Under the pieces are notes generated by a model that saw only the letters and a program-made list of their open reading frames with translations, was not told the origin of the DNA and made no database searches. The translations under genes and the position numbers were made by a program. This document shows, piece after piece, positions 1,436 through 9,841 of a DNA stretch of 9,841 bases (the first letter of the stretch is position 1; the number at the start of each line of letters is the position of its first letter). Source of the DNA: Thermoplasmatota archaeon (GTDB lineage: Archaea; Thermoplasmatota; E2; DHVEG-1); contig JAUWYM010000012.1 of assembly GCA_030615845.1 (NCBI GenBank), positions 1 through 9,841 of the forward strand, given 5' to 3'.

Positions 1436-1465
1436 TAGAACGAATTTCATTCGTGATCGGTTAAG
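1436..1465 (+). repeat. left inverted repeat of the 503-bp module
   Basis: CATTCGTGATCGGTTAAG at 1448-1465 is the exact reverse complement of 1920-1937 (18 of 18). Similarity continues outward with one indel and a mismatch through CGAAT (1441-1445) to TAGA (1436-1439). The outer part is itself a small hairpin, CGAAT-TTC-ATTCG (1441-1453). Confidence 0.85.
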
Positions 1466-1533
1466 AAAATATAAAGATCAAAATAACATGGTTTCAACAG
1501 ATTAGATTAAATATTGGTAACAAATTACCAATA
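1466..1533 (+). promoter_or_regulatory. promoter and operator-like palindrome of the small basic protein
   Basis: Two TATA-like stretches are visible: AAAATATAAA near 1467-1476 and ATTAAATATT at 1506-1515. The second is about 27 nt from the ATG at 1540 and would give a leaderless transcript. The perfect palindrome TATTGGTAA-CAAA-TTACCAATA (1512-1533) would lie between that TATA box and the start of transcription, where archaeal repressors commonly bind. If the first box is used instead, the palindrome becomes a stem-loop in the leader. No Shine-Dalgarno is seen before the ATG. Confidence 0.5.
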
Positions 1534-1539
1534 CTAACC

Positions 1540-1782
1540 ATGACACAGGTAATAAAGACGATCAAAGGACGTAAATATGCTTATGATGTAAAGTGGGATC
1601 CAGAAAGGAAGAAACAAATATGGACGTATCAAGGAAGGGTAGAGAAAAAGACCGATCTAGAAAAGTTGAAGGGAGAACTATACAGTGAAATAATGAGGCA
1701 CGTAAGGATACAAAAGAAAGACCGGAAGGAAATAATGAAAGCTATCCAGGAGGTTTTAGTAAAATACGAGTCCTATTGGTAA
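1540..1782 (+). CDS. small basic protein of the inverted-repeat module
   Basis: An 80-residue, Lys/Arg-rich protein that starts at ATG. Residues 3-36 look like beta strands (VIKTIKGRKYAYDVKWD, then KQIWTYQGRV). This pattern recalls the short N-terminal region of some IS4/IS1634-like transposases and solo archaeal proteins of mobile regions (recollection, not a search). Residues 38-76 are predicted to be helical and charged (KTDLEKLKGELYSEIMRHV). It has no DDE, HUH or tyrosine/serine recombinase motif, so it is not an evident transposase. It is the only gene between the inverted repeats at 1436-1465 and 1920-1943, and it is flanked by two copies of one palindrome. A DNA-binding autoregulator, an accessory factor or a passenger gene are all possible. 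The regular codon structure supports a real gene; its function is unknown. Confidence 0.65.
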   Translation: MTQVIKTIKGRKYAYDVKWDPERKKQIWTYQGRVEKKTDLEKLKGELYSEIMRHVRIQKKDRKEIMKAIQEVLVKYESYW

Positions 1783-1792
1783 CTTTTACCAA
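1776..1792. repeat. second TTGGTAA palindrome, overlapping the stop codon
   Basis: TTGGTAA-CTT-TTACCAA repeats the arms of the palindrome at 1514-1531 exactly, with a 3-nt instead of a 4-nt spacer. The TAA stop of the small basic protein lies within the left arm. No T-tract follows directly, so it does not resemble a terminator. A second protein-binding site, or the boundary of a nested unit at 1512-1792, is more likely. Confidence 0.75.
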
Positions 1793-1919
1793 CAAATTCT
1801 ATGCATCTGACAATATCAAGCTAAAATGGGAGGCATTCTCCTGTTGAAAAACAATCTTCGGCATCTAGTTAAGGTGCTAAATATGAACTATGAATGTAAT
1901 TGAGCTGCAGCAAAATGCC
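1783..1919. other. non-coding right part of the inverted-repeat module
   Basis: No convincing gene lies on either strand between the palindrome at 1776-1792 and the right inverted repeat. A short GGAG-GCATT-CTCC inverted repeat is present around 1829-1842. On the minus strand this DNA supplies the 13-residue tail (AFCCSSITFIVHI) of the ORF that enters from 2098. Confidence 0.4.
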
Positions 1920-2098
1920 CTTAACCGATCACGAATGGATTCGAATCTATCAAGTATATATTTTTGAAAATCTTCATAATCTTTGGAAAGTCGTTTCCCT
2001 TCCAAAAGTTTTGGTTTGTTTCTACTAAAGAAACAGATCGAATCCATATCCATCTGATCTCCCCCGAAGACGAAGTAATATGGTTTGAAATCTTTCAC
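1877..2098 (-). pseudogene. truncated ORF running into the right inverted repeat
   Basis: The minus-strand frame is open from an in-frame TGA near 2125 to a TAG at 1877-1879. GTG at 2098 is a possible start, giving 73 residues. Residues 1-60 look protein-like (VKDFKPYYFVFGGDQMDMDS, then KRLSKDYEDFQKYILDRF). Residues about 52-60 (FESIRDRLR) are encoded by the inverted repeat, and the following tail is Cys- and hydrophobic-rich and unlike the rest. The ORF begins 47 nt after the stop of the RND transporter on the same strand, so it could be co-transcribed. I recognise no family. It is most simply a gene fragment whose 3' part was replaced when the module arrived, or one whose tail is exchangeable by inversion. 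Confidence 0.35.
1920..1943 (-). repeat. right inverted repeat of the 503-bp module
   Basis: CTTAACCGATCACGAATG (1920-1937) is the exact reverse complement of 1448-1465, followed by GATTCG. As at the left end, the outer part forms a small hairpin, CGAAT-GG-ATTCG (1932-1943). With the left copy it delimits 1441-1943 (503 bp). No clear target-site duplication is visible in the flanks. Confidence 0.85.
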
Positions 2099-6601: not shown

Positions 6602-7786
6602 ATGAAAGCAGTCATTCTTGCGGCAGGCGAAGGAAAACGATTACGACCATTTACTGAAACCATGCCGAAGGTAATGCTACCCGTTGCAAACAAACCTATA
6701 TTAGAATATGTTTTTGATGCAGTAAAAAATTGTGGAATCGAAGAAATCATCGTTGTTGTCGGATACAAAAAAGAAGTCATCATGGAGTATTTTAAAAACT
6801 ATAAAGACATCAAAATCACCTATGTTGTACAGGAGAAACAGCTTGGAACCGCCCATGCATTACTACAGGCAAAAAACAACCTAAACGACTCTTTTATTGT
6901 CTTATCAGGAGACAACATCATTGATCGGAACAGCATTTCAAAATTAATGAAGGGCAAAACAGAATATTCCATACTAATAAAAGAACATTCTCATCCATCG
7001 AAATACGGCGTCGTTCTTGTAGAAAAAAACATTCTTAAAGAACTTGTTGAAAAACCAAAAGAAGAACTAGGAAGATTTATTTCAACAGGTATATACAAAC
7101 TCCCCCTCAAAGTATTTGACGAAATAGAGGAGCTAACATCTCAAGGCATTTACGCCCTTTCATCTGTTGTACAATCAATTATTGATAAAGACAAAACTAT
7201 CAATACAATACTTGCAGATGTATGGATGGATATCGTGTATCCGTGGGATCTTATCAGTGTGAATGAAGCTATGATTCATCATATTCCTGCATCCACCAGC
7301 GGCGTTATAGAAAAAGGAGTCACTATGAAAGACGCTGTCTCTATAGGAGAAGATACCACGATCTACTCTGGTTGTTATATCGTCGGACCTGTTGTGATCG
7401 GCAGTGGCTGTGAGATAGGGCCAAATGCATGTATCTTCCCTTCAACAACCATTGGAGATAACTCTGTCATCCGTCCCTTCTGTGAGATCAGAAATAGCGT
7501 CATAATGGAGGACGTCCATATAAACTCCAACTCATATCTCTCACATTCAATCGTTGCCAAGGGAAATAGAATCGGAAATAACTTCTCAAGTATAACTGGA
7601 AAATCAACCATTGAAACTGAAGATGAATTTAAAAAATTAGAAAACATTGGTACCATGATCGGTGAAGATTGCACGATAGGAAGCAACGTTGTCGTCGAAC
7701 CAGGAATAATAATAGGGAGAAGATGTAGAATTGATTCTTTGAAAAAAATATGCAAAAACATACCAAGTGAAAGCAAAGTGATGTAA
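6602..7786 (+). CDS. GlmU-like sugar-1-phosphate nucleotidyltransferase with LbH domain
   Basis: A 394-residue protein in two parts. Residues 1-230 are a nucleotidyltransferase: the signature LAAGEGKRLRPFTETMPKVM (6-25), GTAHAL (82-87), LSGDN (101-105, metal-binding Asp), VEKP (149-152) and WMDIVYPWDL (208-217). Residues about 235-380 are hexapeptide repeats of a left-handed beta-helix (VIGSGCEIGPNACIF and following). Archaeal GlmU-type proteins of this length make UDP-GlcNAc from glucosamine-1-phosphate through acetyl transfer and uridyl transfer. The second activity is doubtful here: the usual H-x-x-Y-x-G-D and N-x-G-A-G-T segments read NSYLSHS and RIGNNFSS (310-330), and the following Asn-rich loop is absent. 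It may therefore transfer only the nucleotide, perhaps to another sugar-1-phosphate. It is the first gene of the operon, one base from glmS. Confidence 0.85.
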   Translation: MKAVILAAGEGKRLRPFTETMPKVMLPVANKPILEYVFDAVKNCGIEEIIVVVGYKKEVIMEYFKNYKDIKITYVVQEKQLGTAHALLQAKNNLNDSFIVLSGDNIIDRNSISKLMKGKTEYSILIKEHSHPSKYGVVLVEKNILKELVEKPKEELGRFISTGIYKLPLKVFDEIEELTSQGIYALSSVVQSIIDKDKTINTILADVWMDIVYPWDLISVNEAMIHHIPASTSGVIEKGVTMKDAVSIGEDTTIYSGCYIVGPVVIGSGCEIGPNACIFPSTTIGDNSVIRPFCEIRNSVIMEDVHINSNSYLSHSIVAKGNRIGNNFSSITGKSTIETEDEFKKLENIGTMIGEDCTIGSNVVVEPGIIIGRRCRIDSLKKICKNIPSESKVM

Positions 7787-9615: not shown

Positions 9616-9841
9616 ATGAAATGCGTTATTCTTGCAGCAGGCGAAGGAAAACGGATGCATCCACTCACGTTTACCCGCCCCAAAGTTATGCTTCAAATCG
9701 CCAATAAACCAATCCTGGAATGGAATCTAATAAATGCAATCAATGCAGATATAAAGAAATTTATCTTAGTCGTTGGTTATAAAAGCGAGATGGTGAGAAA
9801 CTATTTTGGCAATGGCAAAAAATGGAACGTCTCAATAGAAT
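9616..9841 (+). CDS. second sugar-1-phosphate nucleotidyltransferase (5' part)
   Basis: The gene runs off the window after 75 codons. The start ATG 9616 has a GGAG ribosome site overlapping the glmS stop region (TGAGGAG, 9600-9606). The N-terminus repeats the nucleotidyltransferase signature, LAAGEGKRMHPLTFTRPKVM (6-25) and NKPILEW, and VVGYKSEMVRNYF corresponds to VVGYKKEVIMEYF of the first copy. The two are clearly paralogues but well diverged, with similarity at DNA level only in the signature. Whether this copy has a beta-helix acetyltransferase domain lies outside the window. It is probably the true GlmU partner of GlmS or an enzyme for another nucleotide sugar. Confidence 0.9.
   Translation, partial: MKCVILAAGEGKRMHPLTFTRPKVMLQIANKPILEWNLINAINADIKKFILVVGYKSEMVRNYFGNGKKWNVSIE

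What the first reader, a model, noticed from the sequence alone, without database searches (positions are those of the whole stretch)
1436..1943. 503-bp module with long inverted repeats and a single 80-residue basic protein
The ends share an exact 18-bp inverted core plus a diverged outer part, and the only gene inside has no transposase or recombinase motif. A unit this small could be a non-autonomous mobile element carrying a passenger gene, or a new minimal element whose 80-residue protein takes part in its own movement. The repeats and gene are seen directly; mobility is inference.
Basis: partly seen in the sequence, partly recalled or inferred. Interest (0 to 1): 0.7.

Follow-up and report, generated by a model that had tools for sequence, protein, structure and literature searches.

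The report
Small archaeal gene riding borrowed transposon ends
A 490-base stretch of an archaeon's DNA has the end sequences of a known jumping-gene type around one small conserved gene, so it is likely moved by a jumping enzyme made elsewhere; relatives of the gene, framed by a matching pair of DNA marks that the protein is predicted to bind, recur inside several different kinds of ends.

Summary
The repeats are real. Its 18-bp ends are identical to those of a full-length IS4-family (ISH8-like) insertion sequence in the sister species. A near-identical pair of 570-bp relatives sits in two different genomes in unrelated flanks with exact 10-bp target duplications, so the kind is mobile. The window copy is single, has no target duplication, and no helper transposase was found in its 73%-complete genome.

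The cassette reading holds, but the story is larger. The inner part aligns end to end with an IS701-type cassette, intact in two relatives. Homologous genes occur in a third end type (at least four copies in one genome, 13-bp duplications) and on a likely circular 6.8-kb element. In 8 of 9 loci the gene is framed by TTGGTAA-N-TTACCAA palindromes, one between a TATA-like box and the start, one at the stop. The protein is under purifying selection; residues 1-47 match the N-terminus of IS1634-like transposases; no catalytic domain.

Best explanation: a mobile insertion cassette carrying an orphan transposase N-terminal domain, predicted to repress its own gene through these palindromes and mobilised in trans. 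New variant of a known kind.

The parts
1448..1937 (.). mobile insertion cassette, 490 bp
   Evidence: 18-bp exact terminal inverted repeats; ends identical to full-length IS in G001
1448..1465 (+). left terminal inverted repeat CATTCGTGATCGGTTAAG (ISH8/IS4 type)
1920..1937 (-). right terminal inverted repeat, exact reverse complement of the left
1487..1505 (+). decayed IS701-type left end (13 of 19 to CTTGACTTTGTCAGATTAG)
   Evidence: alignment with L013/L014, whose intact ends stand at the same place; the 13 of 19 alone is not above the window background
1802..1820 (-). decayed IS701-type right end (CTTGATATTGTCAG...)
   Evidence: alignment with L013/L014; score alone not above background
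1507..1514 (+). TATA-like box TTAAATAT abutting the upstream palindrome (by eye)
   Evidence: similar A/T box before the palindrome in L013, L014, L017, L018, L019, L026, by eye in the output
1514..1531 (.). upstream palindrome TTGGTAACAAATTACCAA (predicted operator)
   Evidence: upstream site with at most one mismatch in 8 of 9 gene-bearing loci
1540..1782 (+). 80-residue basic protein; residues 1-47 related to the N-terminus of IS1634-like transposases
1776..1792 (.). downstream palindrome TTGGTAACTTTTACCAA overlapping the stop codon
   Evidence: downstream site with at most one mismatch in 8 of 9 gene-bearing loci

Best explanation
The 490-bp unit has the ends of an IS4-family (ISH8-like) insertion sequence around one small conserved gene and no transposase, so it is likely a mobile insertion cassette moved in trans by an ISH8-type transposase, and its 80-residue protein is predicted to bind the two TTGGTAA-N-TTACCAA palindromes that frame its own gene and to repress it. 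Shown: the ends, the mobility of relatives, the recurrence of gene plus palindromes in other kinds of ends, purifying selection on the protein, and its relationship to the N-terminal part of IS1634-like transposases. Inferred: trans-mobilisation of this copy, DNA binding, and autorepression (the upstream palindrome lies between a TATA-like box and the start codon, where a bound protein would block transcription). The history inferred from the alignment: an IS701-type cassette carrying the module came to lie inside an ISH8-type shell, the outer ends stayed intact and the inner ends decayed.
For: Ends: CATTCGTGATCGGTTAAG at both ends of a 1413-bp IS in the sister species G001 whose 460-aa ORF scores as IS4-family transposase (E 6e-73, over cut-off) and has YSARWHIELIFKELK, fitting the YREK motif (ISH8 described with CAT ends, YREK and 10-bp repeats in passages of PMC2266710; the spacing of the motif is recalled). 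CATNNGTNATCGGTTAAG was found in 12 of 45 family genomes (own included), its backward control in 0 of 45. Mobility: L017 and L018 carry a 570-bp unit, 98.6% identical over 573 bp, with no other match between the two loci, each with an exact 10-bp duplication; 5 of 8 ISH8-type end pairs show exact 10-bp duplications. Other shells: IS701-type in L013/L014 with CTAA on both sides (the G010 IS with such ends scores as IS701, E 6e-92); TAGCCTGTTG-type in G037, five exact left ends, four with readable and different flanks, one at a contig edge; two copies with 13-bp duplications read from contig ends; 174-nt inverted repeats around a homologue on contig L026. Palindromes. Selection: dN/dS 0.09-0.14 for the window gene against L013, L014 and the first 70 codons of L015. 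Domain: hhalign 95%, E 2.5e-8.
Against: The window copy is single in its genome, has no target duplication, and no relative of the ISH8-type transposase was found in that genome (0 matches), though only 73% of it is held. L016 carries the gene with no upstream palindrome, a two-mismatch downstream one, and no ends recognised. The IS701-type remnants in the window are not above background by score alone. The 80-residue model has no convincing fold match, so DNA binding rests on homology and the palindromes. TTGGTAA-N1-TTACCAA also lies before pstS-like genes in three genomes of one genus in which the gene was not found, so a host regulator may read such sites.
Confidence: 0.7

Rival explanations
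1. The protein is a trans-acting inhibitor: an orphan transposase N-terminal domain that competes with a full-length IS1634-like transposase for its sites, like the Tn5 inhibitor (recalled).
For: Residues 1-47 match the N-terminus of IS1634-like transposases (L127 over the IS1634 cut-off), no catalytic domain; one transposase-like ORF (L131, not itself classified) has TTGTTATTACCAATAACAA at its start, sharing TTATTACCAATAA with the L013 site.
Against: Around the 13 palindromes of the 45 family genomes that lie outside the module, 0 of 13 fetched stretches (608 ORFs) hold a match to the 80-aa profile or to the profile of those transposases, so no full-length partner with these sites was seen; the C-terminal half has no counterpart in those transposases.
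Confidence: 0.3
2. The palindromes are subterminal sites: the protein pairs the two flanks of the unit and so helps whatever transposase recognises the outer ends.
For: The site is kept on both sides of the gene in 8 of 9 loci across different end types; in L026 some of the sites lie inside the 174-nt inverted repeats.
Against: Two MITEs of 195-196 bp with the same ISH8-type ends, without gene or palindromes, have 10-bp target duplications, so the protein is not required for ISH8-type movement; no experiment.
Confidence: 0.2
3. The gene is a true passenger that acts on host genes (for example phosphate uptake, whose operator in genus g12 resembles the palindrome) and is spread because it helps the host.
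For: TTGGTAA-N1-TTACCAA next to the TATA-like box of a pstS-like gene in the three loci examined; purifying selection.
Against: The gene was not found in the genomes with the pstS site (incomplete genomes); the pstS matches are below the families' cut-offs; sites in modules mark the gene itself.
Confidence: 0.2
4. A fixed host locus with chance inverted repeats.
For: Single copy in its own genome.
Against: 18-bp exact repeat beyond all 200 resamples, same ends on a full IS, patchy distribution, 6 of 99 genomes with own included.
Confidence: 0.02

Closest known systems
MIC231 mobile insertion cassettes of the Bacillus cereus group (IS231, IS4 family)
   Same: IS-type ends, no transposase, a carried gene, presumed movement in trans (MICs described in passages of PMC3129680; the MIC231 papers seen only as references in PMC2266710 and PMC6542083; their content is recalled)
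   Different: Archaeal, 490 bp, ISH8-type ends, carried gene is a transposase-derived domain with its own palindromes, and relatives of it also ride IS701-type and other ends
ISH8 subgroup of IS4
   Same: 5'-CAT ends, 10-bp target duplications in relatives, likely helper with a YREK motif
   Different: The unit has no transposase
IS701 family
   Same: The inner part aligns end to end with 335-336-bp cassettes bearing IS701-type ends in two relatives
   Different: In the window those ends are decayed
IS1634-family transposases
   Same: N-terminal ~47 residues
   Different: No DDE domain; different C-terminal half
MITEs
   Same: Short, non-autonomous, IS-derived ends; 194-196-bp MITEs with ends of the same type exist in relatives
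   Different: Carries a gene under purifying selection

Membership tests
Mobile insertion cassette (MIC) | terminal inverted repeats of a known IS group | tested here: met
   identical ends on the G001 IS4-family IS
Mobile insertion cassette (MIC) | no transposase gene inside | tested here: met
   of ORFs of 50 aa or more only the 80-aa gene lies wholly within the ends; no DDE family
Mobile insertion cassette (MIC) | carries a gene other than a transposase | tested here: met
   80-aa gene, dN/dS 0.09-0.14 in three pairs; it is transposase-derived but has no catalytic part
Mobile insertion cassette (MIC) | target duplication of the helper's length | tested here: inconclusive
   exact 10 bp for L017 and L018; 4 of 10 for the window copy
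Mobile insertion cassette (MIC) | movement in trans by the cognate transposase | not testable with these tools
   likely helper present in sister species G001, none found in the window's incomplete genome
IS4 family, ISH8 subgroup (as an IS) | own transposase with DDE and YREK | tested here: not met
   no transposase inside
IS1634 transposase family (protein) | DDE catalytic domain | tested here: not met
   80 aa; the match covers only residues 1-52 of the relatives
AP2-like/integrase N-terminal DNA-binding fold (seriously considered) | three-stranded sheet with a helix | tested here: inconclusive
   model has three strands and two helices, pLDDT 85, pTM 0.47; no convincing match

The most novel reading that the evidence does not exclude
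Gene plus palindromes form a portable control module that recurrently takes over the ends of insertion sequences of different families: an orphan IS1634-type domain binds its two flanking palindromes, pairs the ends, and lets one small unit be carried by IS4-, IS701- and other transposases and by a circular plasmid-like element.
Probability: 0.15. Interest if true: 0.82.

Novelty: new variant of a known kind. Interest (0 to 1): 0.58.

Why it matters
Cassettes that ride on IS ends are described from bacteria (Bacillus cereus group; Xanthomonas papers use the term too, listing). Here a small gene family with its own paired sites recurs in at least three kinds of IS ends, mostly in archaea, and on a likely circular element, under purifying selection. 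That makes a question testable: why a transposase-derived domain without a catalytic part is kept and repeatedly re-packaged, as regulator, inhibitor or helper of movement.

Full report
Setting. The window is contig C122 of a 1.05-Mb, 195-contig, 73%-complete genome; its family includes G015, whose matching record is titled Candidatus Thermoplasmatota.

Observation. The 18-bp exact inverted repeat 1448-1465/1920-1937 is real; 200 Markov resamples gave at most 15. By the CAT rule of ISH8-type ends the unit is 1448-1937, 490 bp. The flanks agree at 4 of 10 positions and the right one is a palindrome, which likely explains the apparent outer repeat.

What the ends are. The identical 18-mer bounds a 1413-bp insertion sequence in sister species G001; its 460-aa ORF is an IS4-family transposase (NCBIfam 245.8 bits, cut-off 115; DDE_Tnp_1) with YSARWHIELIFKELK. 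In passages of PMC2266710 the ISH8 subgroup has CAT ends, YREK and 10-bp repeats. The degenerate end occurs in 12 of 45 family genomes (own included), the backward control in 0 of 45. Among the 8 end pairs of this type checked, 5 have exact 10-bp duplications: L017, L018, the G044 insertion sequence and the G031 and G025 MITEs; the window, G001 and the G018 MITE do not.

Mobility. L017 and L018 (records titled bacterium isolate AUK088 and Candidatus Methanoxibalbensis ujae) share a 570-bp unit with such ends, 98.6% identical over 573 bp, no other match between the two loci, and different exact 10-bp duplications. The protein is patchy: 6 of 99 genomes, own included; 11 of 389 phylum genomes with the wider profile, own included, of which 5 are weak matches to the first 35-47 residues, three of them in ORFs over 300 aa; 54, then 131, database proteins (the best 120 listed). 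It is single-copy in the window's genome, where no relative of the ISH8-type transposase was found. That genome does hold a stretch resembling an ISH8-type right end (C193) and an IS701-type end at a contig edge (C185).

Nested history. The inner part of the window unit aligns from TAAC to AAGCTAA with 335-336-bp units in L013 and L014. Those have intact CTTGACTTTGTCA or CTTGGCTTTGTCA ends flanked by CTAA on both sides, the ends of an IS701-family insertion sequence (G010: 308.8 bits, cut-off 150). IS701-type end pairs with equal 4-bp flanks: 3 of 4; G004 differs. In the window and L015 these inner ends are decayed; each alone scores no better than the window background, so the claim rests on the continuous alignment.

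Other shells. L019 (G037) has TAGCCTGTTGAAAAATT-type ends; its left end is found exactly in five contigs, four with readable and different flanks and one at the contig edge; contig pairs C43/C124 and C42/C79 share 13-bp strings next to opposite ends, so there are at least four copies. L026 (G037:C14) has a 141-bp terminal repeat, so it is likely circular, 6781 bp, with a tyrosine recombinase; a homologue lies there between 174-nt, 92% inverted repeats. L015 is a copy whose frame breaks near the C-terminus, followed by a transposase C-terminal piece and another ISH8-type end.

Palindromes. Nine gene-bearing loci were examined: window, L013-L019, L026; L020 was dropped. A TTGGTAA-N-TTACCAA site with at most one mismatch stands upstream in 8 of 9 and downstream in 8 of 9; L016 is the exception on both sides. 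Spacing is 3-4 in most, 1-2 in L019, 5-6 in L026. Among 45 family genomes there are 29 exact sites, 16 in module places (one counted twice through the contig overlap of L026); the backward control gave 8. Of 120 protein sequences held, eight have N-terminal extensions of 13 residues or more; 7 of 8 can be back-translated to contain the palindrome, against 0.19% of shuffles (some of the eight are close relatives of each other). Thirteen sites lie elsewhere; three of them, examined, stand before pstS-like genes of one genus (below the families' cut-offs); none of the 13 fetched stretches holds a match to the 80-aa profile or the IS1634-like transposase profile.

Protein. dN/dS is 0.09-0.14 for the window gene in the three pairs where dS could be estimated; the other four window pairs were saturated. 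Residues 1-47 match a profile of four IS1634-like transposase sequences (hhalign 95%, E 2.5e-8); of these L127 was classified (121.9 bits to NF033559, cut-off 100). The model has three strands and two helices, pLDDT 85, pTM 0.47, without a convincing fold match.

Mechanism. Shown: ends, mobile relatives, module recurrence, selection, domain relationship. Inferred: mobilisation in trans by an ISH8-type transposase; binding to the palindromes; autorepression, because the upstream site lies between a TATA-like box and the start codon. Why the downstream site is kept is open; end pairing is the bold reading, but two MITEs without the module also have 10-bp duplications, so the module is not needed for ISH8-type movement.

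Verdict. A mobile insertion cassette in an archaeon, a new variant of a known kind, with an unusual carried gene.

Noticed in passing
L026 4069-4102 and 5794-5827: Perfect 34-nt inverted repeats frame the tyrosine-recombinase gene of the likely circular element G037:C14; possibly an invertible segment.
   Followed up: no
L066, L067, L068 near 1501: TTGGTAA-N1-TTACCAA next to a TATA-like box of pstS-like genes in genus g12; a host phosphate regulator may use a site like the module's.
   Followed up: partly
L015 4909-5766: Broken module copy directly followed by the C-terminal piece of an ISH8-type transposase and a further IS end.
   Followed up: partly
window 1877-2098 (-): 73-aa ORF running into the right end of the cassette, perhaps a gene fragment cut by the insertion; no Pfam match.
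   Followed up: partly
L131, at the start of its 551-aa open frame: Palindrome TTGTTATTACCAATAACAA between a TATA-like box and the start of a transposase-like ORF (not classified by a family search).
   Followed up: no
window 9616-9841: A second gene start resembling the nucleotidyltransferase gene at 6602-7786 (shared GCAGGCGAAGGAAAAC stretch), cut by the contig end.
   Followed up: no
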